NCBI GenBank assembly: GCA_036872755.1 | Contig: JAVHNS010000001.1 | Location: 4,092,001 to 4,156,000 of the forward strand | Source of the DNA: Orbilia blumenaviensis | Taxonomy: Eukaryota; Ascomycota; Orbiliomycetes; Orbiliales; Orbiliaceae | Direction of reading: 5' to 3' | Length of the DNA: 64,000 bases | Shown: piece by piece, positions 15,852 through 58,500 of the stretch | Layout: the number at the start of each line of letters is the position of its first letter | How positions within the stretch are numbered: position 1 is the stretch's first letter | Position numbers and translations under genes: made by a program | Notes under the pieces: model-generated | What the model saw: the letters and a program-made list of their open reading frames with translations, nothing else | The model's database searches: none | What the model was told of the DNA's origin: nothing

Positions 15852-15881
<30 letters not shown>
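15852..15881. repeat. Poly(T) tract, 30 bp
   Basis: An uninterrupted run of T in the C2H2-GST intergenic region. Confidence 0.95.
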
Positions 15882-15884
<3 letters not shown>

Positions 15885-16811
15885 GGTTGATTAGTTGATT
15901 TCTCGCGATCTCGATCCCTAGATCTCTCCGCCAGCCATTTGCATACATCAATATTTCGAAACTCGAGCTCAGCCGACAGGGTGAACTGAAAGTGAGGTAT
16001 GCACCCGGAAAGCTTTAAGGAACCCGTGTGGCTTCCCGCCCACGAATCCGTTGTTCTGAATTGGAAACCGGCGGAAAATCTGACGTCAGTCATAATGCCT
16101 GGTGATAATTTCTTCCGGGTGTATGTGCTAAGTATGTAATGTACCTACATCGACTGGGTGAGGTTAATTAATGCGCCCGGATATGGCTTGTCAGACGAGC
16201 CACTTAAAGGAGGATCCTGAGAATTTGCTGCAGGGCCATCGGATCATGTTTCTAGATCCAAGATTCGCTTGCAACATTCAGGACGCAACAGGATTTTCTG
16301 ATCCTCACTAAAATCGTCGATTGCGGAGAGGCGGGGCCCTTTTAGCCTTGACCAGCCCAGGTCTTTCATAATAGCACCACCAGGCTAACACCCGAGGTCA
16401 TTGGAAACTATTGCAGGGACCCGTAACAGATGACATCACGATGCATCGAGACTGCCAATCCTTATATTGGGTGCTCGACTTATAAAAGCTCAGGAACAGT
16501 TCCGTTTACCGGTCGTTGAAGAATAAAATTTCTGTCCCTATCTCGCAGTCTAAAATATCTGCTCCCGCACACATGGGATGGCCGACCTACGGAGTACCCT
16601 GCATCAATATACTATTCTAGCTAAGAGCTTAATTTTACTATTGCATTTGTAGTGCGATCATCATGACATAAGAATAGAAACAAATACAGGGCGTGCAGTC
16701 CCTTGATTCTCAACCCTACAACATCCGCTTTCTGTTTTCCTTTCGCCGGATCGCCTTCATTCCCCGTCAATATCAAGCATTCCCCAGGCCGACTTCTCCG
16801 GAAGACCCTAC

Positions 16812-18760
16812 TCAAGGCAACCCTCGGCCCTCGTTGATGGCTTTTGCTACCTCGCTAGTATTAGGTCGGTTCTCTGTTCCGAAAAAGTTAGATCAAAACT
16901 TGTAAATCTCGATCCCTATCAAAACAACACTTGAGGGCCGAGACTCGATCGGATCGATCCCTAATTTCGGTAGACATTACCTGCATAACGTTCATACGAA
17001 TCGAGGTATAATTCGTCACCAGATGTGGTGGCTCTAACGCTATTCTCACCTTCTAATGCAGCTATGAAACGGCCAAATCTGCTGTCTTCAGACGGTGGTT
17101 GCCACCCTCGGTATGGCTGCAGAACCCTCGGGCAGCGCAGGATCCATGGAGCTACCATAACATCGACAAAGGACATTTTGGTTCCCTGTTTCATGCATTT
17201 TGTGCAAAAAATCAGTTTCGGCCCTACCCGTTAATCGCTAGCCAAACAGGTATTGCTGGTGATGCAGAACACTAGATTACCGGGGCAGTCATTAGGTCGC
17301 ACATACCATGAAGAATGGTCCCTGGGGGTCTGCTGCTTCGAGCAGGCTGTTCACCTGAGAGTTGGCGTGCATTAGTGCTGGATATTCTGCTCCGATGACT
17401 GGTCCAATTAGAGCTGCAGCTGGACAAACCAACCTGTTTCTCAAATTCCTTCCCATGCTCCGCTTGTTTTTCGGGCTGTTGAGCTTGGAGAAAACGATAA
17501 AATGATGGCACAATGTTTCGGGATATCTGTAGCCATCGAAACAAAATATTTTTATCGAACGTCATGAGAGCTCAGTAACCCGAAAGTGTGGCGGTGAGAC
17601 GTTAGGAAATCTAGAACATCACCTACATGGTCCGCCCAGAGCCTGCTGTGCGCTTTCTGTTTTGGGTCCTGGGGTAACAGCTTTTTTTCCGAAATATCGT
17701 CTACCTAACTCAAACGTTTAGCGGAGGCGTTTTTCGCGGAGACGGCCCACCTGGCCAACAGGTAGTGATTGAGTTTTTGGCTTACATATTCCATGAGCAC
17801 TGTCGATTCGTAACAACCCCAACTACCAAACGAAGACCAATTAGAATCCAGTTTTTCTAAATAGACTTTAAAGAACTGGTCTTGAAAGGACGGACGACGC
17901 ACTCGCCATGCCTGAGAGCAGGAACTAAATTGAAAACCCAACTCAATAATATTAGTATATGATATCAGCCCCAAGACTTCAGCTCGGGAAAATTTCCTCA
18001 CGAACGACGTACCAAGACCCTGAAAAGATACAGAAAAAAGAAGTAAACATTCTTGGTTAGTGAGAGGCAGCTAACTTTTAGTGTCTCAGCCATTAATCCA
18101 TACCCTTGGATTGACATCCAGAAGCTCTTTTGGTTTCTATCTCCGGCACCATTCCTCAGTTATCAGCGCCCGCGTTCCCAAGCTCGCTTTCAGATCTCCA
18201 AAAATAAAATAAAATAAAATCATGCGATATGGATGTGATGCCAGGTCAGCTTACTTTGTATGGGTCCACCTGGTATCTCGGTGTTAGCTCAGCCAAGTCC
18301 CAGATACCCGCATTCCCCTTCTCCGTCTGCGTAAGGGGAGTTTACTACCTCAATATACTGGTACTCAAGTCTAAATGACCCAAATAAGATTAGACTACGA
18401 ATCCAACGTTACGTGTCTCAATTGCCAATTCTTACCCTGAAAGCTCCAGGGCGATCCAAACTCGCTTAGAGCGGATTTAGCTTTAGCTTCGAAGATCGAG
18501 ATCCGATGATAGCGACTGGTAGCGAAAGTGGAGGGGATTTACCTGCACAAATGGACTAGGGAAGGTTTGGTGTTCTTTGTTAGCTAACGTTGATCTACCT
18601 TTGGTATCCGGGGGATGGGTTTCTGGAATTACCAGAAGCAGCCTCCGTAAAGTTTCAATTGAGCGTCATGCGAATGTTTTTCAACCGTAAGCAAGGCGTC
18701 GCCTGTGGCCTGGGTGTGATACGTTTTCTGGGTCTTCTCTGTGGTTGATGACGACGACAT
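16812..18760 (-). CDS. Omega-like glutathione S-transferase in 14 exons
   Basis: Exons in order on the minus strand: 18760-18633, 18555-18543, 18464-18436, 18370-18349, 18269-18255, 18136-18104, 18019-18013, 17924-17903, 17822-17786, 17704-17627, 17526-17434, 17354-17307, 17185-16981 and 16873-16812. Sizes are 128, 13, 29, 22, 15, 33, 7, 22, 37, 78, 93, 48, 205 and 62 nt, summing to 264 codons including the stop (263 residues). All 13 introns (65-121 nt) are GT-AG and every phase fits. The protein reads as a GST: LKLYGGCFCPFVQRVWIALE (thioredoxin fold, catalytic Cys), KPKELLDVNPRGLVPALRHG, DWGCYESTVLMEYV, then the helical domain with ISRNIVPSFYRFLQAQQPEK and SFVDVMVAPW, ending NEGRGLP. Probable role: glutathione-dependent thiol transfer or detoxification. 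The catalytic Cys codon is split by intron 1 (TG|T). An AAAAT repeat lies in intron 5. The start ATG gives the family's usual N-terminal length. The joins are inferred from conservation, without transcripts. Confidence 0.88.
18201..18220. repeat. (AAAAT)4 microsatellite inside GST intron 5
   Basis: Four tandem AAAAT units lying wholly within the 118-nt intron between the 15-nt and 33-nt exons of the GST gene, the longest intron but one of that gene. Confidence 0.9.
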
Positions 18761-21700
18761 GGCTGCGGAGTTAGATGCAATGTATGTTTCACTTCGCGAG
18801 GCCTTGGCTGGACCCTGATGGTTTTTCTGATGCAGTGAAAGTTCCGAGAATGTGGGCTCGACTGGCCGACGAAATGGCGGCTATAGTTTCTGAGGGGATG
18901 TTGGATCCGGGGATAAGGAATGATAGCTGCATTGATCGTGATATAGAAACCCTCTTTCTGTTGGATGGTCTGATATCGATACGTCTGATAGACATATGAG
19001 GTCATATATGCATTGGCCAATCAACGACGAGCTTCGCAACTAAGCTCGGACAGGCAATGTCAGCCTTTTCCAAACCTCGGTTTTTCCATTTTGTGTTATG
19101 CCGGTAAATCCTACAATACATACTGCTTACTTAGGTACTTAATTACTCTTAGTAGCATATGCGCAAAAAAAATAACCATATAGATGATAACAGGTAGCTG
19201 TTTACGTGACTATTGATGTATTCTCATGGGGAAATTATAGATGCGGGGCGCCGGCAGGGACGCCGGCGTTCTCCTGTTGTTCAAGTGCAATGTCGCCTGC
19301 TGCACATGTTCACATGCGCATATACACACCTGAGATCAAACGGGAATCGATCGCTTTATATTATCGTTCTCGCCGTTAGACATTCCAGCCCCAGCTCAGA
19401 TCAGCCCGGAACCTTTTTTTTGTAAGCTACAATCTCCACCCTTTTATCTTGATCGGTATATGCCGGACAAGTAACGGTCGATAGCTGGCTTATCTGAGCT
19501 ACTACGAGCTAGTGTACTTTCTTCCCTGATCCTCATGACCATGTATGGTTTCACAAGACCCGGAATTTCTTTCCTACAGACTTAGCTTAGTCATGCTGTT
19601 TGTTTGTATTCTGCGTGTGCTGGTTTGGGTTTATGGTAAGGAGCCCATATAGAGCCGTATGTGCCTATGTATAGGAACTATTGTGTGAATATTTAGTATA
19701 GTAGTATATGCAATTACAGAGTCTCGAACTCGATCGACCCATGCGGCCCGCAGACCTGAATAACAGTGTAGCATGTAGTAGACGTGATGGATTATGCTTA
19801 AATAGGGGTTCGGATGTGTAGTGGCGAGAACTTTTTTTCTTATTCATTCGACTATCTTCGAAAAGAAAAAGATATGCAGCATGCACTGCTGCAGGCGGAC
19901 TTTTTCCAGGTCTCAGTTTTGTGCTACAGAAAACTTGCCGGTCGAAACAAAAATTACAACCTCGTGTGGAGTGCATGGACTTCCTGATTCAGCGCCCAGA
20001 CTGCACTGATCAACGGATCTGCGAGAAAAAACCCAACAGCAACACATGGTCGACTCCTCGCACGACATATTTTGCATGAAAAAATCTGCCGTGTGATGCC
20101 ATACGGGTGTTTGGATATATTTCCTGCTTATAAATCATAAGTGGCTTCCAGATGCTCGGTTTGAGCCACATGTTGTCGTGTCTGTTGCAATTCCCAGCCA
20201 ATATCCGGAGGTTGGGATCGAATCAAAAACGAATGAGTAGTAGTTCGTATATTCGGTTTTTCGCGGATATCAATATGGACGTCGACACTTATTCAGCCAA
20301 GTATGAATCTCTGAAGACGGTTCCGGAACAAGTTTCGCCCGTTAATTACGTTAATTGCAAGTTGAAATATCTTAAACGCGGATTTAACCCAGCGGTAACT
20401 CAAAAGGACCTGGATTCGAATATTCAGGCCGAGGACTATATGCTTTTGAGGAAGTTGCGAACCAGCTCCGGGTACTGTTCCCCCATGAGTGTGTCAATGG
20501 AGGGGCTTAGTTCACGGCCAGGCTTGCGTTTGATCGCTCGGCTTCATGTGCGACGCGACGGTCACCGGTCAAAGATATCAGGGTCCCTCCCATGTCGGGA
20601 TTGGCCGCTTCTAGGATTCAATTCTTAGATCTGGTCTCAGTGTTAACATCTCTCTTTTGGAACCTTGATGCTGGCTGCTTCGTTACCGGAACTCTCCCTC
20701 CTTGGCCTTCTCGCTGCGAAATGTATCAAATCTTGGGATCTCGCTGCCTTAAAAGTATCCCAGAACTTTCGTTTCAAGGATGTATACTCCGTCAACCAAT
20801 ATTCCGTATCTGCGCAATCGCAAGCGAGTTGACACATTTTATGCAAGATGTTTGATATGCTCCATCCTAAAGGCCACAATGAGCTTCCGATCCCTCTAAC
20901 AGATATCCGAATACACTGTACGGCTGTATCTTTATCGAAACAATAATGGGTGAATAGTCGAGAAGTTAGATGAAGACCGTGGCTGTGAGACTCCGGCGTC
21001 CAAGGCAACTACAAAGACTGTCTAACTCGCAGCCAAATACAGATCTATAATGCATTTTACATAGGATTATCTGTTGCAAACTAGGCAGTTACAGCTTGCG
21101 TATCTTCTCCGCAAGACATCTTTCAGATAGGGCGATACCCGGCTATAGACATCGTCAATTCTTAACGGTCCCGCTTTCCATATCCAGTATACCCCCAAGA
21201 TATCGTCTTATTGTTCGCCAACCACCATCCTAAATCAGCAGGCATGAAACCTTCAATTGGAGATTCTGGGGTCTTTCGGACGCGGGATCGCTTCCGCTTG
21301 AGATATCCTTCCCCCAAATCCAACCCCCTGTGCATGCGCACCTATTAACTTACTTAATCTCGCACACGATGCCCTCCCACATGCAAAGAAACCAGCTCGT
21401 CGCACCAATCCGACAGGAAATTAAAAGAAAAAAAAAGTGTATGTTTAGCATGCATGTGCATACTTATTCTCCAGGTCACCCAACGGCTGGCGGGGATATA
21501 TCGCCTCCCGCTGCTCTGATAGCCATAGTCAACCATTCGCCCGCTGTTTGTCGGAATAGATAATGTATGGGGATCAGGGACCGGACGATTGAGACACCTG
21601 CCATTATGGCGTCAAACTGCAAACCCCCGTGTATACCTTCTATCAATTAGAATAAAAATTTCTGCTAGCGCTTAAGTAGATTCTTGACGAATCGAAACGG

Positions 21701-24964: not shown

Positions 24965-26328
24965 CTACTGCGTCCCGTTGGCCCCGTTGGCTGTAACACC
25001 GTTGGCGGCAGACGTGACACCGTTGGTGATAGTGGTTGTGACAGCTGGAACGACTCCAGGGCCCTTGTCGGATTCGTAGGCTTTGCAACCTGCGAGATAC
25101 CCTTCCCATTGTTTGAGTGATGCCTGTTCTTTTAACCCTTCCTTGATTAAATCAACGGCATCTTTCCAGTCGTCTGTGACACCGGCAACGACTAACAATG
25201 CAGCCGAGTTGATCAAACAATAGTCCATAATAGGATTTCCAGGTGCGACTTCATTCCTCAAGATGGACTTGACTATATCAGCGTTTTCATGAGGGGACAG
25301 GCTCTTACACTCTTCCAGTGGATGAAGGGGAACTCCAAAGTCTTTGACCGGATGGAGCTCAAACTCCTCGATGGTAGCTAGCGTACCAGACGGGGAACCG
25401 GGAGGAGCAGCAATAAGTCTCCAGCAGAACGTCTTTCCACAAGGGGAAATCTCGTCAAGTCCTTTCCCGACATCTCCACAAACCACCATCCCCTTTTGGC
25501 AGCCCATCAACTGAAGAACCTCGCTGAAGACCTTTCCGAGTTCTCGGTTCTTGACGCCAAGGATTCGAGCTTCAATCCCTTCAATCGGGTTTGAGAGGGG
25601 CCCGACAACATTGAAGATTGTGGAGAAGCCGAGTTCCTTGCGGACTCTAGCCAGGGATCCGAGACTAGTATGGTATGTTGGAGCAAACAGGAATGCCAGG
25701 TTCGAGTAGTTCGCAAAGATTTTGCCGACAGCTTCGGGGGCAATGTTTAGAATGTGGGGACCACCAGCGAGGGCCGAGATCATGTCGGAACTTCCCGACA
25801 CAGAGGTGGCAGCGCGATTGCCATGTTTGGCGACAAGAAGGTAGGGTGACGCAAGGAGCGCAGAGGTCGTAGACACATTAAAAGTATTATGTCCGTCTCC
25901 GCCAGTGCCAACAATGTCGACCTGTGATTAGTTAACGAGTTGAGTTAGTTATCTGTTGGTTGCGTTTTTTTGGGGGGACCTTGTCCATGAGACAGACAAC
26001 TTACAAAGCCACCGTGGTAGTTATTGCGCTTCAACAAGCGCTTCTTTGTCGCAAAATCTTTGTCATGATAATTGAGCGGAACCCTAACAGCAGCCTCTCG
26101 CATGGTCTTGACTACTGCACTAACAATCTTTGATTCGTTGTAAAGGCCTGTGAAGGTCAGGGCAGTAAGGAGAGCGGCACGTTGGGTGTCGGTGACTTCA
26201 CCCTGACCGAGAATTCCAGCGAAGGCCGCCGTAATCTCGGTGACGAGGTCGTCAGTGACAACTTTTTCCTCGGCATCCTGGTACTGGGCGAGCAGCTTCA
26301 GCAGTGGAGTGATAGAGAAGGTCGACAT
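24965..26328 (-). CDS. TRP4: Anthranilate phosphoribosyltransferase
   Basis: Two exons, 26005-26328 and 24965-25921, with an 83-nt intron (25922-26004, GTAAGT...CACAG) falling just before the active-site loop; 426 residues. The enzyme joins anthranilate to PRPP, the second committed step of tryptophan synthesis. Motifs: the N-terminal helical domain (GEVTDTQRAALLTAL); VDIVGTGGDGHNTFNVST, the glycine-rich PRPP loop encoded at the start of exon 2; KHGNRAATSVSGSSDMISAL, the anthranilate/PRPP-binding segment; and FNVVGPLSNP further on. The last 25 or so residues form a low-complexity tail of threonine, asparagine, glycine and alanine with repeated NGVT units, not part of the enzyme fold. It is the only tryptophan gene in the window, as expected for dispersed fungal trp genes. 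Confidence 0.96.
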
Positions 26329-27836: not shown

Positions 27837-29491
27837 ATGCGACCGTTCACAAGGTCCATCGGCCATGCCCAAAAGCATTCCGGCTTCATCACATCCTCCC
27901 TCGTACGGCAATGCTCCGTACCCCGTTCGATACATGCACGGACGATATCCACTATCTTATCCAAATACCCAACAGCGCCAGAACGGGGACAGGTAGCTTA
28001 TTTGAACCAATCTTTTCCCCTGGTTACCTTCCGGGGTTTTCATGCTTCGACCTTTCTGAGATTATCCGATTCTAGCGGTAAGAAGGCGGAGGAAGAGGGC
28101 AAGGCTAAAGATCGCGAAGAAGAAGCTGGTAAAGAATCTAAAGAAAAGGAGGGCGAAAAGAAAGAAGAGAAGAAGAGGGAAGATGCACCTCCGCCCCCAC
28201 CCCATGGAGACAAATCGCCTTTCACCGTCTTTATGGAAACCCTGCAGACTGAATTCAAGAAGTCGAAGGAGTGGAACGAGTCCACAAAGGCTATCGCAGA
28301 CCAGGCACAGCAATTCACTGAGTCAGACGCCGTGAGGGCAGCCAGAGAGGCATACGAGAAGTCCTCCAAAGTAGCTGGTGCTGCAACATCGGCTACCGGT
28401 GAAACTCTGAAAAAGGTCGGTGGTGCCATTGGGAAGGGTGCCCAATGGACATGGGAGACACCGGTTATGAAGGCAGGAAGGGATGCGGTGAAGGCTACTG
28501 GCCAAGGTGTTGAAAAGATGACCAGGCCTATTAGAGAAACTGAAACATACAAGACTGTCAAGGGAAATGTCCAGGACGTCATTGATGATGGTAGCAGCAG
28601 CAGATATGGTGGTTATGTGGAGCGAGAGGAGCGAATGCGGCAGAGAGAGCTTCGGGAGGCCAAGAAAGGACCTGGCAGGAAACATGAGCCTATGGTTGAG
28701 GATCCCAAGTAAGTAGACAACCCATCTTTAATCTCGAGGATAAATGTCTAACATCAACAGTGCTGGCACCAATGTTACCCTCCACAAAGACGCTGCCTGG
28801 AAGGAGTCATGGCGTGATTTCAGGGACAGCAACAAATTTATGCAATCAATGTTCAGCCTCAGGAAGCAATACGACGAGTCCGAGAACCCCTTCATATCGA
28901 CGACCAGAAACATCGCAGACAGAGTAGCTGGCTTCTTTGCTGAGAACGAGACTGCCCAGGTCATTAAGAAATTTAAGGAAATGGACCCAAGCTTCCAACT
29001 CGAACCGTTCCTGAGGGAGCTTCGAGAATGGATTTTGCCAGAGGTCTTGGACGCTTATGTCAAGGGAGATGCCGAAATCCTGCAACAGTGGCTCTCCGCT
29101 GCCCAGTACTCCGTCTACTCTGCGCTTTCGAATCAGTACAAGACAGCTGGGCTCCGGTCTGATGGAAGAGTTTTGGATATCCGAAATGTTGATATCATGC
29201 ACGCAAAGCTGTTGGATCCAGGTGAAATCCCAGTCTTCATCGTGACATGCCGTGCTCAAGAAGTGCACGTGTACCGGGACATCAAAAGCGGCAACCTGGC
29301 AGCTGGTATGGAGGACCGTGTACAGCAGGTCACATATGCCATCGGCCTGACTAGGATTGTCGAGGATATCGCCAACCCCGAAACCGGCGGCTGGAGGCTG
29401 ATTGAGCTCCAGTAAGTTTGTTAACTCAACTGATACCTTCGAGAAATTGCTAACTGTTCATCGTAGGAAATCTGGCCGAGACTATATCTAA
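27837..29491 (+). CDS. TIM44: Mitochondrial import inner-membrane translocase subunit Tim44
   Basis: Three exons: 27837-28708, 28761-29411 and 29467-29491; introns of 52 and 55 nt; 515 residues. Residues 1 to about 80 are rich in arginine, serine and histidine and nearly free of acids (MRPFTRSIGHAQKHS...), a matrix presequence. A charged Lys/Glu region (AEEEGKAKDREEEAGK) and the helical hairpin with FMETLQTEFKKSKEWNES follow, the part known to contact mtHsp70 and the Tim23 channel. The C-terminal Tim44 domain starts near DSNKFMQSMFSLRKQYDESE and runs through LREWILPEVLDAYVKGD, DIMHAKLLDPGEIPVFIVTC and GGWRLIELQ. The last eight residues are in the 25-nt third exon. Tim44 anchors the import motor at the inner membrane and is essential in yeast. 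Confidence 0.96.
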
Positions 29492-33741: not shown

Positions 33742-34976
33742 ATGGTTGGAACAGCTCCATTACAGATTTCTGGTCGCAATGTTGGGTCACTAGGTAAGAA
33801 GACCGGCTTTTAGATATAAACACATCGACACGCCGACAATAGTTCCAGGAGTTCATGAAAGGTAGAATATAGTGTAATAACGATATTGAAAATATGACAG
33901 GCTTCGGTTTGATGAATTTCACATGGCGCCCCACCAACACTCCAGATGAGCAGGCCTTTGCCGCCATGAACGCAGCGCTGGCCGATGGTGCCAATTTTTT
34001 TGTCTCCGGCGAGTTCTACGGCACTCAGGATCCACAGGACAACCTTTTCCTCATCAACCGATATATTACAAAATACCCAGAACATGCAGGAAAGATAGTC
34101 CTCTCGGTCAAGGGTGGCGTTAACCTATCCGTCCGCAAACCTGACGGTTCACCGGAGGGGATCCGAAAGTCTATCGACAACATTCTAGATAAGCTTGAAG
34201 GGAAGGTTAAGCTTGATGTATTCTGCATCGCTAGGGTAGACGCTTCAAATCCCGTTGAAACTACCTGGAAAACAATCAAAGAGGAGTATATCGACACCGG
34301 CAAGATCGGGGGCTTGTGTCTTTCAGAGGTGTCTGCTGCTACGCTCCAAAAGGCGTTGGGAATTGTTCCAGTGTCAGTTCTTGAGGTGGAAGTATCGCTT
34401 TGGGCAACTGAGATCTTTGAGAATGGGCTGGCTGAGATCTGCGCGAAGAATAATATTCCTATCGCGGCTTACTCGCCGCTCGGCAGAGGGTTTTTGACGG
34501 GCCAATTGAAGAGTCCTGAGGATATTCCAGAGGGGGATATGAGGAGACATTTTGACAGATTTCAGCCGTGAGTTCCCTGTTCCTCAGTTCACACCCCAAC
34601 TAAAGTTACTAATAGTTCTGTTTAGAGAGAACTTCGGCAAAAACCTTGCCCTCGTTGAGGCTATCCAAAAGATTGCACAGACAAAAGGCGTCACCCCCGC
34701 ACAACTCGCTCTGGCTTGGGTTGTCCAGCAAGGAAAGAAATTTGGATGCACTATCATTCCAATTTTGTAGGTTCCTCTTATATACACAATAAGTGTTTTC
34801 GTGTTACTAACTCATCTCAATCTAGTGGCGCCACCAAGGAGTCACAGGTCGTCGAAAATCTCCAGGAGGCGAGTTTGACTTCCGAAGAGATGACAGAGAT
34901 AGACATGGTTTTGAGGAGTATTAAACCGATTGGTGGACGGTATAATGCGGCTCATGAACGTGCCTTGTATGCTTAA
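33742..34976 (+). CDS. Aldo-keto reductase, pyridoxal reductase type
   Basis: Four exons: 33742-33793, 33901-34567, 34626-34766 and 34826-34976; introns of 107, 58 and 59 nt; 336 residues. It starts [17 protein letters not shown] and continues [11 protein letters not shown], the nucleotide-side start of the barrel. The catalytic region reads [20 protein letters not shown], with the Tyr in EFYG, followed by IVLSVKGG with the Lys. As in the AKR8 (pyridoxal reductase, Plr1/YakC) group, the classical Asp before the Tyr and the classical His are replaced (CIARVD in place of the H-x-x-D site). The later [13 protein letters not shown] and the NADPH-binding block (PILGATKES or PIFGATKES after splicing, then [10 protein letters not shown]) are typical. 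Likely reaction: NADPH-dependent reduction of pyridoxal to pyridoxine in vitamin B6 salvage. Substrate assignment is by family only. Confidence 0.9.
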
Positions 34977-39359: not shown

Positions 39360-40273
39360 ATGCGATTCCAAGTGCGATACCCCGTCTGCCTGGCAGTGAT
39401 CCAGCTCGCTAGCTGCGTCGTAAACGCAAAGACCCTCCCCAGTCAAATGTTCCAAGAACCAGGCGTCCAAGAGCTTCGTCCACCCGTCCTTGCAAATTCG
39501 GCACCAGGCTTAGAAAAGCCATTGCAAACGTTGGAAACTAGGAAGCCACCAGTCGAGGTAGAAATGTTCGTCATGAGTAAGGTACGTTAGCCCTGTGGGC
39601 CCCTTTGTCGACGTCTAGGTGCCTGTGTCTGGCCTTATCTGCAAGCTGGAAGCTGCATTATCACATATCCCCCCCCTGGCCGATAATGCAATAGGCAACT
39701 ATCCATTAGTTCGCCGAATGCTAACGGTGTTCTCGCTCCTTCTAGTGTCCCGACGCTCGCGACTGCGTTAGAGACCTTGTTCTCCCTGCCATGGCACAGA
39801 TCTACGATTCCGGGATTATCACCTTAAAGCCGACATATATCGGCACACCGGACGATTCTAATGCCGGAATGGCATGCAAGCACGGTCCGGACGAGTGCCT
39901 CGGCGATATACTCGAGCTGTGTGCCTACGAACTTCACAGAGATCGCCCACAAATGTGGCTTGGTTTTATCAATTGTATGGGGCAAAATTATCAGGATATC
40001 CCTCAGGATACCCATGTCTCCAACTGTGCCTCAGAATATGGCCTCAGTTTTGACCAGCTAGAAAAGTGTGCGGCATCTGAGGACGAGAATAGAGGGATGG
40101 AACTATTGAGGGCAAGTGCACGAAGGGCAATTGACCGAGGTATCTCGACTAGCTGTACTGTTACCGTTAACGGAAGGACGGTGTGCGTGAGAGATAATGG
40201 ACAATGGAAGGGTTGCACAGGCAGGAAAGAGGACTTGGTCGAGGAGGTCCAGCAGGCTTACGATAAGGAATAA
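39360..40273 (+). CDS. GILT-family thiol reductase-like secreted protein
   Basis: Two exons, 39360-39581 and 39746-40273, with a 164-nt intron; 249 residues. MRFQVRYPVCLAVIQLASCV is a signal peptide with likely cleavage soon after. The splice joins FVMSK to CPDARDCVRDLVLPAM, which gives the active-site region. The family signature C-[QK]-H-G-x2-E-C-x2-N-x4-C appears as CKHGPDECLGDILELC, with Asp in place of Asn. IGTPDD and MWLGFINCMGQ also fit. Animal GILT reduces disulfides in lysosomes through a CxxC or CxxS site. Here the site reads C-P-D-A, so the second active Cys is missing, although a further Cys follows three residues later. Redox activity is therefore uncertain. Cysteines near the C-terminus (TSCTVTVNGRTVCV, WKGC) suggest disulfides and a secretory location. 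Confidence 0.87.
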
Positions 40274-46095: not shown

Positions 46096-47787
46096 TTAGG
46101 AAACCTGCTTGAGGTGAAAGTTCTTCAATCTAACGAACTGATCAAAGCCAAATTTAGACAATGTCTGGCCTCTACCAGAGTTCTTCCACCCAGTCCATGC
46201 CAGATCCTGGTAGAAGAATTAAAACGTTAGAACCCATTAGTCAGACCTTGGTATATTTGTTCATTTAACTCACCGGACTTGGGTAGTCTGCTCTGTTGAC
46301 GAAGACAGTGCCGGCCTCCACTGCTTCCGCTAGTTTTTCACCAGCAGGGATATCGCGAGTCCAGATCGACGCAGTTAAGCCGAGGTCAGAGTCGTTCATC
46401 AACTGAATCGCTTCTTCGTCAGAAGAAACCTTTTGGATTGGGATGACCGGCCCGAAGGTTTCCTCCTTCATGACCTCTACAGATATCCAAGGGAGCCCTA
46501 AATATCAGAAATCTTCCGTATTCATAAAAGCATCTCATTACACAGGGGAAACACATACGCATATCATGATTGACGTTGACTAAGATCTCAGGTCTGACAA
46601 ATGTCTCGCCAAGTGCTTCGCCTTCCTTGAAGACATCGGGGGTCAAAGTTTCCGCCCCGCTCTTCAGGGCCTGGTCAATATGCTTCCTGATGGTCTGCGC
46701 ACTCTTGACGCTGATAACTGGGCCAAGGTGGTTTGAGCCAGTGAAAGGATCCCCAAGTTTGTAGTTTTTGACGACACCAACGACCTCATCCACGAACTTG
46801 TCGTAGATATCCTGGTGGACATACACTCTTTCAATCGAACAGCAACTCTGACCGCTGTTGAACACGGCACCATCAACAATCTCCTCGGCAGCCCATTTAG
46901 CATCCACATCGGGTCGGATATATGCAGGGTCATTTCCTCCCAACTCTAATCCAACAGGGATGACACGTTTCGAGGCGGCTTGCTGAGTTGCAATTCCTCC
47001 TACGACTGAACCCGTGAAAGTGACGGAGCTGATGCCGGGCGCCGATATTAATTGCGACAAAGTATCTGCGTTTCCGCAGTGAATGACCTGGACCACATTC
47101 TTCGGTAGCCCCGCTTCCTCTAGGACAGATAAGAAGGTTTCGGGGACCGTAGGGGTTTGCGGAGACGGCTTCAAGATGAGAGCATTCCCGGCAAGTAGCG
47201 CGGGAACCAGAGAGTTCACGAGAATGAGATATGGATACTATCATCTTGATCAGAATTTTATCTTACCACGTCTTTTTTTTATTTTATTTATCTTCCTCCT
47301 GATTTCTTCGCAGATATCCGAAGTATATGTGGTAAAATATTCAGGGTAGAGTTTGTTTTTTGTTCGGGAAACTTACATTCCATGCGAAGATCACGAGGAC
47401 AGTACCAAGGGGTTCTTTACGAATATATCGCTTGAAGCCGGCCTCCTCATCTCCCGGAACATCCTTGAGTGCCTCCGTGGATGCCTTAAGCATGTACCGC
47501 CCACGGAGAACGGCGGTCTTGACCTCTTTGGCACAGTACTGAATGGGCCTGCCCATTTGCTCCGTAAGATCCCGAGCAAGATCGTCAGCCTTGGACTCGA
47601 GGATATCCAGGGCCTTAGCAACGAGTTTCTGGCGGGCAGGGAGATCATAGGAGGCCTTGAAGCCGGCGAATGCCTTCTTCGAGGCTTCGACTAAAGCCGG
47701 GATTTGGTCAGGAGTGAATTCATCCCTGGTGTGGATTGGCTTTTGAGTAATCGGAGAGATAGTAGTGAGCACCGGTTTGTTAGACAT
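46096..47787 (-). CDS. NAD(P)-dependent aldehyde dehydrogenase
   Basis: Four exons: 47377-47787, 46559-47237, 46274-46476 and 46096-46206; introns of 139, 82 and 67 nt; 467 residues. It starts MSNKPVLTTISPITQKPIHT. Motifs: APALVEASKKAF-like N-terminal helix; TVLVIFAWNYPYLILVNSLV across intron 1; PSPQTP with the nucleotide-binding Lys before it (ALILKPSPQ); VTFTGSVVGG; LELGGNDPAYI with the catalytic Glu; FNSGQSCCSIERVYV with the catalytic Cys; KEETFGPVIP; and the C-terminal LAWTGWKNSGRGQTLSKFGF. It is a complete ALDH of usual length. The substrate cannot be read from sequence; relatives are annotated as broad-range or succinate-semialdehyde-like enzymes. The frame stays open upstream to 47982 with an arginine- and serine-rich extension, so a longer, mitochondrially targeted form from an upstream start is possible but unproven. 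Confidence 0.93.
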
Positions 47788-55556: not shown

Positions 55557-58500
55557 TCAGAGTGCCAAACCATGCCCATCCCCACACCATCGGTAAAGCA
55601 TAAGGACTTCTCTGCGCCTTTGCTTCTGCTCCTCCATATCCTCAGGTAAACATCTGCCGCGTACTTGTGCAAGAGCAGATCGCATAACTTTGCGGAAGTT
55701 TCGTTGGTATTCTGTGTTCAAGGTAACCACACACACTTCGTGGGCCCTAACAATAGTTTCGCAAGCACCAACAACCGCCTGCGACGCCTCCCCTTGAAGT
55801 TTGTCCGCGATGAGAAGAAGAAGAAAGCTGCCTTGCAGTAGATAGATACCAAAGAAATATGGCATAAAGCTTAAATCAGGGTCGTATTTGAGGATGTTGC
55901 CTATAGCCTCAGCAGCGGAGACTGCATGAGCCGTGGCGGAGATGAAACCGGGTGATGAAATCCAGAGATCATTATCGTCGAGCATACTGATTGGGTCCCA
56001 TTTGCCAGAGAGAAGTATGTGCAAAACATGAAGGACATGTGTCCCATACGCCAAGGCAATCTTCTTCTGCATTTGATCGCCAGAGAAGGGAGAAGAAGAC
56101 TTATCAGTCACAGGAGCCGTTTGAGGAGCAATGGCAGGATCTGTTAGTGTATCCCCGTTGCCAACCACCTGTAGGCGGGCCTCGTTATTCTCAGGGAGTG
56201 CTTCGGCCGCCTGCTGCTGACCGTTCATATTAACAGCATCATCATGCGGCTTTTCTTGATCAGTATCAAGGCGATTATGCTCCCAGTCTGACAAGCTTCT
56301 TTCGTACATGTCGAGTTGGCTCTGGATTTCTGCAACTTGGTCCTCCCAATCCGCTCCGGAACCACCAAAACCTTGTCCAAGTCTTGGATGGTTCCTCGCA
56401 TGGTGAAGGTCCACAATTTCTCCCAGAATAGTCATCAGGGGTAAGAAGAACCCGAAGAGACTCGGCCCTGTGACCTGGATCGTTGGGCCCGCGCATCGAT
56501 TTTCCTGTTGAGTATTTGATGAGATCGATGGTGGAGGTGAAGGGTTGGAGGCATAAATATTAGGTACCTGATTCAAGGAGTGGAACGGGTCCGCAAGGTC
56601 TTGTCCATTGCTGTTCTCATGGGACCCGTAGAAATCCCCGTTTTGCCATCTCGTATCATCCATTGGTTGTAAAAGATCAACGCACTCTATATCTCGAAGA
56701 GCAAGTGGTCGGTTGTAGCAAAGGGCAAGGTGTCTATCAACGATGTACAATAGCCACCAAATCCTGCGCCTCTCTTCCTTTTCCTCTTCGCTCGTAGTTG
56801 ATCTTGTATTCGGTACGACTCCTTCCTCCTGCTCTAATTCCGGTTGGTCACTAACTTCCCTGTTTAACCTAAGCTCCCGTGCCAGAGCCCACGCAGCGTT
56901 CCACCACCGTAAAGATGCGCCCTTAAACTCCGAAGCGGAAATAACTGTAGCTAAATGTATGTACGTAAGAATATCATCAACAGTCCCAGCAGCACCCACA
57001 ACGCCTTCTCTACCTGTTGGACCGGGTGAGGCTAGCCCCCCGAGTCCCATTCCTGCGTTTTCGTTCTCATGCGATGAGTGGGAGGAGCCGACCGCCACTG
57101 AACCCAGGGGAATATGGACCAACGGTCTCAGAAAACCAATGCACATCTCCAGCAGTTTCTGGCAGATCCGGCCCCGAGCACTGGGAGAAACCGTAAGGGC
57201 TGGGGCATCCGAAGTCTGAGCCGCAATCCAGAGCATCGATGCTAGGAGTGCCGGCGTAGTCAATCGAGGATGTGTCGGATGCAGAACTGACTTCTTCCGC
57301 AAGACGTGGCATAGGACATACGGAGACGCCGGCTGGAAGAATGAGAGAATCGGATTCAGGAAGAAGAGATCTAGAAGTTCGCAAGCAAGATGTGTTGGAA
57401 TTATTTGTTGCAAGTGGGGGAGAATAGGCAAAAGGACGGGGTACCTCAGATGATTTGGATTCGAGTGCATTGGAGTAGGTGGTGATGGCAATGAGAGCCA
57501 GCCAGGGGACTGATTGTCCGGAGATTGGCCCAGAAGACCCGCCAGTGGTGAGATGCCTGCACTCGATAGACTCAAACCACCTTGAGGCCCGGCTTGATTG
57601 TGCGGAGAGATCATCATAAAGTCATGACCGTAGCCTTGGTTTGGCATCGGCTGAGCAGCATGAGTCTGGAGTTGAGGGTGCGGGAGCATTCTGGCGCCAC
57701 TCATCAGGCCGTTCTGTTGAGGCTGGTACTGTGGCATCCTCCCATATGGCACTTGAGCAAAGGATGAATCGCTGATTTGAGCCATATGGGTAGGCGAGTC
57801 TGGCGTGGGCAGGTGGTGGTGGTGTTGAGATGGCAGTCTGTGATGGTGGTGTTGCTGTTGCATCTGGCTTGGAGAGAAGTCGCTCTGATCACTAGATGCG
57901 GTATGTGTGGAGCCAACAGATGACCTATTGGGTCTTGGGAATCCCAGGTCTGGACGTTGTGGTGGTGGTAGGTCAGAGAAAGATTCTCTCGATGCGGATG
58001 TAGGCATCATGGCAACCGGAGTTTGTGACTCTCCATTCTCTTCGACAGACCCACCGTTGGGAGTAGAGGTTGCAGCGGCGGCGGCGGCGGCGGCTGCTGC
58101 TGCTGCGTTTTGGATGTCTTTTCTTGATGCCTTTCCTCGCTTCTTACGTTCTCGATTATATTTGCAGTCAAGATTGAAGTCTACAAGAACACCCAACTTG
58201 CTGGTTAAAACCAATGTTCTAAGTTATAATTAAGGTATAGTTTTCAACCAAGCCCGGCCGCAAAAGTCCTTGCGACGAAGCCGAGTAGGCAAGGCAAAGA
58301 TGAGAAATCAAAGGAAAGAAAATTCATAACAATAAAAATAAATAAATAAAAACTCACCGATACAGTGCTGGCATGGCATTTTACCATCGCATCTTGTCCT
58401 TAGTTGGTTACATTGATCGCAAGCTCTGCTGATTCTGCGACGGATTGGTCCTGTTGTTGGTGAACCACTACCAAGGTGGCCCAGGGGCTGGAGGCCTCCG

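What the first reader, a model, noticed from the sequence alone, without database searches (positions are those of the whole stretch)
16812..18760. A glutathione S-transferase shattered into 14 exons in a filamentous ascomycete
A full GST of 263 residues can be rebuilt only by joining 14 exons, half of them under 40 nt. All 13 introns have GT-AG ends, all phases agree, and the joined protein follows the omega-like fungal GST pattern from end to end. Thirteen introns in under 800 coding bases is far above the norm for this phylum and for its neighbours here (1-8 introns). Automatic annotation would probably miss or truncate it.
Basis: partly seen in the sequence, partly recalled or inferred. 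Interest (0 to 1): 0.88.

Follow-up and report, generated by a model that had tools for sequence, protein, structure and literature searches.

The report
Fungal detox-enzyme gene with 14 exons
In a fungus related to the nematode-trapping Arthrobotrys, a normal glutathione transferase gene is cut into fourteen pieces, eight of them tiny and in a row, so gene-finding software often gets it wrong although the protein itself is ordinary.

Summary
On the minus strand, 18760-16812, fourteen exons separated by thirteen GT-AG introns join in frame to 792 nt (263 aa plus stop). Spliced alignment with six relatives' proteins returned 14 exons in 6 of 6, with the same junctions for 5. The product is a Cys-type omega-like GST, 90% identical over its full length to Arthrobotrys flagrans DFL_006130, so the host is taken to be an Orbiliales fungus. 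Density is 16.4 introns per kb of CDS; published means are 2.75 and 2.8 introns per gene for A. flagrans and A. oligospora. Exons 2-9 (7-37 nt) encode residues 43-102, with the glutathione-site motifs.

Automatic annotation does struggle: 8 of 11 named Orbiliales clusters listed depart from the 263-aa form; 3 of 11 are complete. Indirect signs put introns 1, 4, 9 and 13 at the same places in other Pezizomycotina, so part of the pattern looks old. No introner copies were found.

No RNA of this species was seen. Verdict: real, extreme in degree, ordinary in kind. Open: why it persists, and why intron 2 looks conserved.

The parts
18633..18760 (-). exon 1 (128 nt), start codon to the first two bases of the Cys43 codon
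18543..18555 (-). exon 2 (13 nt), completes Cys43, then PFVQ
18436..18464 (-). exon 3 (29 nt), RVWIALELS + part of G57
18349..18370 (-). exon 4 (22 nt), end of G57, then LEYQYIE
18255..18269 (-). exon 5 (15 nt), VDPYK
18104..18136 (-). exon 6 (33 nt), KPKELLDVNPR; skipped exactly in annotations P0028 and P0150
18013..18019 (-). exon 7 (7 nt), GL + first base of Val83
   Evidence: residues 81-83 ungapped in 138 of 138 proteins other than the 12 named Orbiliales
17903..17924 (-). exon 8 (22 nt), end of Val83, PALRHG (holds Pro84) + part of D90
17786..17822 (-). exon 9 (37 nt), end of D90, then WGCYESTVLMEY (holds Glu95-Ser96)
17627..17704 (-). exon 10 (78 nt)
17434..17526 (-). exon 11 (93 nt)
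   Evidence: one of six proteins put its end 8 nt further on
17307..17354 (-). exon 12 (48 nt)
16981..17185 (-). exon 13 (205 nt)
16812..16873 (-). exon 14 (62 nt) with stop codon
18465..18542 (-). intron 2; its translation resembles retained-intron peptides of A. megalospora (17 of 19 in the best ungapped segment) and O. oligospora
18270..18348 (-). intron 4; position apparently shared with Aureobasidium; strongly folded as RNA (z -3.97)
17355..17433 (-). intron 11; retained in O. oligospora annotations P0004, P0006, P0007, P0150
16874..16980 (-). intron 13; position and phase apparently shared with Loekoesia (P0143); strongly folded (z -3.16)

Best explanation
A working gene for a cysteine-type omega-like glutathione transferase in an Orbiliales fungus, split by thirteen ordinary U2-type introns. 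Each intron is short and has its own donor and acceptor, most with a branch-point-like word, so each can be recognised across the intron (intron definition). That makes exons of 7-37 nt tolerable, and all fourteen exons are expected to be joined constitutively into one 263-aa enzyme. The enzyme is expected to bind glutathione in its thioredoxin-like half and to use Cys43, whose codon intron 1 splits, for thiol transfer or reduction. The structure is shared by Orbiliales; introns 1, 4, 9 and 13 probably predate the split from other Pezizomycotina, while the age of the other nine is open. Shown: frame, splice signals, homology, residue conservation. Inferred: constitutive splicing, intron definition, catalysis, ages.
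For: Gene model by hand and by spliced alignment. Full-length orthologues P0001-P0003 at 89-90%. P0005 (84%, 98% covered) and P0008 (75%, 100% covered) lie on contigs of at most 1130 and 1041 nt, too short for about 0.79 kb of coding plus 13 introns of this size, hence cDNA-like or intron-poor. Residues of exons 2-9 are ungapped in 137-138 of 138 proteins other than the 12 named Orbiliales; Cys43 in 137 of 138, Pro84 138 of 138, Glu95 137 of 138, Ser96 138 of 138. The orthologue's Cys aligns with the FCPF motif of GSTO1 chains. Orbiliales annotation errors fall on these junctions: introns 2 and 11 are read into, exon 6 is skipped exactly, the frame is lost at intron 13. Of the 138 others, 4 have an internal insertion of 5 aa or more beyond residue 25, and those 4 sit at intron 4 (two Aureobasidium), intron 9 (Bogoriella) and intron 13 (Loekoesia); chance of three independent hits within one residue about 0.003. 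P0142 starts in what reads as intron 1.
Against: No RNA from this species was seen. The contigs of P0005/P0008 were not read; that they are cDNA is inferred from length. Introns 2 and 9 lack the strict CTNAY word (both have GCTAAA), and intron 2 ends in AAG. The insertion test was devised after seeing the data. No fungal DNA outside this genome was read, so shared positions rest on protein annotations. The Aureobasidium inserts do not begin with the Val that a plainly retained phase-0 GT intron would give, so they show the acceptor side of intron 4 better than its donor side. The same genome's 44% paralogue (C16) has one intron, 3 nt away from intron 1's position. P0008 prefers another intron 11 junction.
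Confidence: 0.86

Rival explanations
1. Most of the thirteen introns were gained in the Orbiliales lineage (or shortly before), in a burst confined to this gene, rather than kept from an intron-rich ancestor.
For: Misdrawn models are frequent in Orbiliales (8 of 11 clusters) while only 4 of 138 other proteins have large internal insertions, which hints at simpler genes elsewhere; the two measures differ and many of the 138 are unnamed metagenome proteins, so this is weak. The paralogue has one intron. Single-gene bursts are known: a transferred amylase in basidiomycetes averages 13.3 introns. A large survey put the Pezizomycotina ancestor at 0.98 introns/kb.
Against: Four positions look shared with other classes. 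No copies of the gene region, or of introns 2, 4 and 13 singly, were found elsewhere in the genome, so no introner source is visible.
Confidence: 0.4
2. The micro-exons and some introns are a splicing switch: skipping or retention turns the catalytic half off, giving a regulated or shortened protein.
For: Exon 6 (33 nt, phase 0-0) skipping and intron 2/11 retention appear as frame-preserving variants in O. oligospora models. Intron 2 reads 17 of 19 codons alike with A. megalospora in the best segment. A microexon switch is reported in Trichoderma (passages of PMC11121469).
Against: The variants are computer annotations of one gene that conflict among strains. In this species intron 2 retention meets a stop codon and intron 11 retention (79 nt) shifts the frame (sequences). 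Six of the eight micro-exons (7, 13, 22, 22, 29, 37 nt) do not preserve frame if skipped.
Confidence: 0.1
3. The gene is a decaying or non-expressed copy that only appears intact when exons are chosen to fit.
For: No transcript seen; the PF13409 scan of the genome did not report the locus.
Against: Full frame, 90% identity to another species over its length, conserved active-site residues, shuffled controls far below.
Confidence: 0.02

Closest known systems
Omega-class glutathione transferases (GSTO1; PDB 6srb, a 261-aa chain named 'Uncharacterized protein')
   Same: Similarity over residues 14-260 to 6srb (E 2.4e-62) and over 33-249 to GSTO1 chains (best E 4.2e-23); the orthologue's FCPF cysteine motif aligned with GSTO1; GST_N domains over Pfam cut-off.
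   Different: GST_C Pfam models score just under cut-off for this protein; no biochemical test. That 6srb comes from a white-rot fungus is recalled, not from a call.
Microexons in filamentous fungi: Trichoderma Xlr2 (20 nt) and Fusarium CYP621A (1 nt)
   Same: Tiny exons coding conserved motif residues, missed by gene finders (passages, part 1 of 3 of the text).
   Different: Those reports concern one microexon per gene in what I read; here eight exons of 7-37 nt stand in a row. Xlr2's is regulated; regulation here is unknown.
Intron-invaded alpha-amylase of Basidiomycetes (PMC3584928)
   Same: One gene with about 13 introns on average (8-22), far above its genomes' means (section 7; abstract).
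   Different: In intron-rich Basidiomycetes, after transfer from a bacterium; its orthologous introns were too diverged to align, whereas intron 2 here seems alignable across Orbiliales at peptide level.
Introners and symmetrical (stw)introns of Hypoxylaceae
   Same: Introns in fungi; intron 13 folds into a long hairpin, as the symmetrical introns are proposed to do.
   Different: No sequence copies of introns 2, 4 or 13 found elsewhere in the genome; only the abstract and outline of PMC8469720 were seen.

Membership tests
Omega-like (Cys-type) GST | Thioredoxin-like GST N-terminal domain | tested here: met
   PF13417, PF13409 and PF02798 above cut-off
Omega-like (Cys-type) GST | Catalytic cysteine in an FCPF motif | tested here: met
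   Cys43; the orthologue's Cys aligned to FCPF of GSTO1 chains; Cys in 137 of 138 relatives. That this Cys is catalytic in GSTO1 is recalled.
Omega-like (Cys-type) GST | cis-Pro and Glu-Ser of the glutathione site | tested here: met
   Pro84 138 of 138, Glu95 137 of 138, Ser96 138 of 138; their roles are recalled
Omega-like (Cys-type) GST | All-helical GST C-terminal domain | tested here: inconclusive
   GST_C_7, GST_C_5 and GST_C_2 match at 26.1, 25.1 and 21.7 bits, below cut-offs of 27, 27 and 24.9; PF13410 passes in orthologue P0001 (25.5 against 24.9)
Omega-like (Cys-type) GST | Thioltransferase / dehydroascorbate reductase activity | not testable with these tools
   needs enzyme
Spliceosomal (U2-type) introns | GT-AG ends and branch-point-like word | tested here: met
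   13 of 13 GT-AG; 11 of 13 CTNAY against a shuffled mean of 4.2
Spliceosomal (U2-type) introns | Removal from RNA | not testable with these tools
   no RNA from this species; short contigs of P0005/P0008 are indirect
Introner-derived introns | Near-identical copies at other loci in the genome | tested here: not met
   only self matches for the gene and for introns 2, 4, 13; the other ten introns were searched only as part of the gene, and very common words are skipped by that search
Stwintrons | Intron inside a splice signal of another intron | not tested
   -

The most novel reading that the evidence does not exclude
The introns around the micro-exons are themselves under selection: conserved intronic elements (intron 2 above all, 17 of 19 codons alike with A. 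megalospora in the best segment) and stable intron folds (introns 4 and 13) are needed to join eight consecutive micro-exons, and their efficiency sets how much active-site-bearing GST is made, a splicing-based dose or stress control in Orbiliales.
Probability: 0.12. Interest if true: 0.65.

Novelty: new member of a known kind. Interest (0 to 1): 0.42.

Why it matters
At 16.4 introns per kb this one gene is more than twice as dense as the genome-wide value reconstructed for the fungal ancestor (7.6/kb), in a subphylum known for few introns. It is a compact natural test of how short consecutive exons can be under intron definition and of whether intron-dense genes survive as relics or arise by gain. 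It is also a benchmark on which gene finders demonstrably fail (8 of 11 listed Orbiliales clusters). The protein itself is an ordinary GST.

Tried and rejected
Introner origin: searched the gene and introns 2, 4 and 13 against the whole genome; only self matches. Repeats inside the gene: only short pairs of 12-15 nt. Intronic small RNA: one Rfam match at E 0.24, 15.1 bits against a cut-off of 376, outside the gene; no tRNA in the window. Antisense coding gene: no + strand ORF over 74 aa touching 16700-18900. Intron selection: peptide-level likeness of introns 2 and 11 beats 20 shuffles of each peptide (scores 79-97 against shuffled maxima 29-38, 5 of 8 peptides tested). P0048 (22 against 28) and P0010 (31 against 31) did not, and P0011 (33 against 26) matched mainly exon 3. 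Without relatives' DNA neutral divergence is unknown, so I do not claim selection. Intron structure in other classes could not be read directly: the genome collections offered are prokaryotic, viral or plasmid, and metagenome scans were capped at 0; I did not scan viral contigs or genome contigs. PDB code 6SRB plus 'glutathione transferase' found no paper. For prior descriptions, 'Arthrobotrys' + 'glutathione S-transferase' + 'exon' gave two papers on other subjects (listing only), and 'glutathione transferase' + omega + fungi + intron + exon gave 42 papers, 20 listed, none on this gene by title and abstract start. These searches do not show that it is undescribed.

Full report
What is there. 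The joined coding sequence is 792 nt with its stop codon and encodes 263 residues. All thirteen introns begin GT and end AG. They are 65-121 nt long, mean 89.0 nt, close to the published means for A. oligospora (90 bp) and A. flagrans (92 bp). Eight of 14 exons are under 40 nt and stand in a row (exons 2-9: 13, 29, 22, 15, 33, 7, 22, 37 nt).

Is it more than chance. I wrote a spliced protein-to-DNA alignment that knows only the genetic code, BLOSUM62 and the GT-AG rule (introns of 45-200 nt). With six relatives' proteins, at two intron penalties, it returned fourteen exons in 6 of 6. For five of the six the internal junctions equal those above; P0008 moved intron 11 by 8 nt. Even P0021, a 64% relative from Tothia fuscella (a dothideomycete, recalled), gave all fourteen, with one residue gapped. 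Masking any of the eight exons under 40 nt, the 7-nt exon 7 included, lowered the P0001 score by 34 to 88, and eight dinucleotide-shuffled regions scored below zero against 1124. A CTNAY word at branch-point distance is present in 11 of 13 introns, against a mean of 4.2 in shuffled introns.

What it encodes and where. The best relatives are Arthrobotrys flagrans DFL_006130 (90%), Orbilia javanica and O. oligospora (89%), so I take the window to come from an Orbiliales fungus; no identical protein is in the list. The protein has GST N-terminal domains above Pfam cut-offs, and C-terminal domains just below. It matches PDB 6srb and omega-class GSTO1 chains. I collected 150 relatives, which are the best listed hits of three searches (120 shown of 861, 120 of 1115, and 3). 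In the 138 other than the 12 named Orbiliales clusters, Cys43 is kept in 137, Pro84 in 138, Glu95 in 137 and Ser96 in 138. Intron 1 splits the Cys43 codon. The micro-exons encode a well conserved part: mean identity 0.70-0.98 for exons 2-9, against 0.51 for exon 1, 0.48-0.59 for exons 10-13 and 0.77 for exon 14.

Evidence on splicing from relatives. No RNA of this species was available. P0005 and P0008 are nearly full-length and full-length relatives (84% and 75%) on contigs of 1130 and 1041 nt, too short for this gene with thirteen introns of this size, so they are probably spliced sequences (that source 'lgn' means assembled read archives is recalled). Of the 11 named Orbiliales clusters listed, P0001-P0003 have all segments and 8 depart (P0004, P0006, P0007, P0009, P0010, P0011, P0028, P0048). 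A twelfth, P0150, also departs, but was found by a search with the retained intron 2 of P0007. The departures are informative. P0004, P0006, P0007 and P0150 read through intron 11. P0007, P0009 and P0150 read into intron 2. P0028 and P0150 skip exon 6 exactly at its borders. P0006, P0028 and P0150 end exon 14 in another frame. So several of the same junctions exist in these species. I read them as annotation failures because they disagree with complete models, in O. oligospora within one species.

How unusual. 16.4 introns per kb compares with one to two per kb in filamentous ascomycetes (PMC3778014, passages). The means are 2.75 and 2.8 introns per gene in A. flagrans and A. oligospora (PMC6453484 and PMC3164635, passages), and the reconstruction for the fungal ancestor is 7.6 per kb (PMC8476143, passages). 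These are averages, so single dense genes elsewhere are not excluded, and I had no gene set of this genome to rank it in. Within this genome, a scan with the GST_N_2 domain gave 9 places; 7 of 9 lie in stop-free frames of 167-283 aa, one frame has two stops, one is 58 aa, and the present gene is not among the nine. The nearest paralogue, on contig C16, is 44% identical over residues 44-263, is 272 aa long and has one intron, after the second base of the Pro codon next to the Cys, 3 nt from intron 1's position.

Age of the introns. DNA of other fungi was not read. Protein annotations give hints: in the 138 proteins, 4 have an internal insertion of at least 5 residues beyond residue 25, and those four are at intron positions of this gene. 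Two Aureobasidium proteins are at intron 4 (read best as extensions on the acceptor side), Bogoriella is at intron 9, and Loekoesia is at intron 13 with a reading that fits a phase-1 GT...CAG intron. One further 3-residue insertion (P0126, residue 106) is not at an intron. Three independent hits within one residue have a chance of about 0.003; the test was conceived after seeing the list. P0142, 74% identical to the Trichophaea protein, starts in what reads as the end of intron 1. I therefore think at least introns 1, 4, 9 and 13 are old. For the rest, gain in Orbiliales and loss elsewhere are both open. The gene and introns 2, 4 and 13 have no copies found in the genome, which speaks against introner spread.

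What remains odd. In the best ungapped segments, intron 2 read in one frame matches the retained intron of A. megalospora at 17 of 19 codons and that of O. oligospora at 24 of 32 including exon 3 bases; intron 11 matches O. oligospora at 16 of 24. For comparison, the coding part 84-263 is 163 of 180 identical to A. megalospora. If the introns were neutral I would expect more drift, but silent sites could not be measured, so this is a lead. Introns 4 and 13 fold much better than shuffled copies (z -3.97 and -3.16; the other 11 lie between -0.70 and 0.63). Conserved intron sequence that helps join the micro-exons is my most novel reading, at 0.12.

Known microexons in filamentous fungi include a regulated 20-nt exon in Trichoderma Xlr2 (PMC11121469, passages) and a one-nucleotide exon in Fusarium CYP621A (PMC12940212, first of three parts of the text). 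A transferred amylase in basidiomycetes carries 8-22 introns (PMC3584928, abstract and section 7). The present gene is thus a striking new case of known things, and an annotation lesson, rather than a new kind of system.

Noticed in passing
P0121, P0123, P0132, P0139, P0147, P0086: In Morchella, Tirmania, Thermoascus, Penicilliopsis and Penicillium annotations (and an unnamed 2426-nt contig) the same GST is preceded in one protein by a conserved segment of about 165-210 aa (HRSTQ..KGR..GTP..RDLC). In the two scanned (P0121, P0132) it hit no Pfam family at E 0.1; the Tirmania segment gave no match in this genome (no positive control). Either an old fusion or merged neighbours.
   Followed up: partly
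L009:1307-2208 (G000 C16): Paralogue of the GST with a single intron placed 3 nt downstream of the position of intron 1, possibly intron sliding plus loss of the other introns.
   Followed up: partly
window 18465-18542 and 17355-17433: Introns 2 and 11 resemble, codon by codon, peptides from retained introns in O. oligospora (both) and A. megalospora (intron 2) annotations.
   Followed up: partly
window 18270-18348 and 16874-16980: Introns 4 and 13 fold far more stably than shuffled sequences (z -3.97, -3.16); intron 13 forms one long imperfect hairpin.
   Followed up: partly
window 15852-15881: A run of about 30 T on the + strand in the region beyond the 3' end of the gene.
   Followed up: no
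window 24965-25876, 28744-29415, 33894-34571, 39791-40273, 46419-47219, 55557-58214: Neighbouring open frames match glycosyl transferase family 3, Tim44, aldo/keto reductase, GILT, aldehyde dehydrogenase and a fungal transcription factor domain.
   Followed up: no
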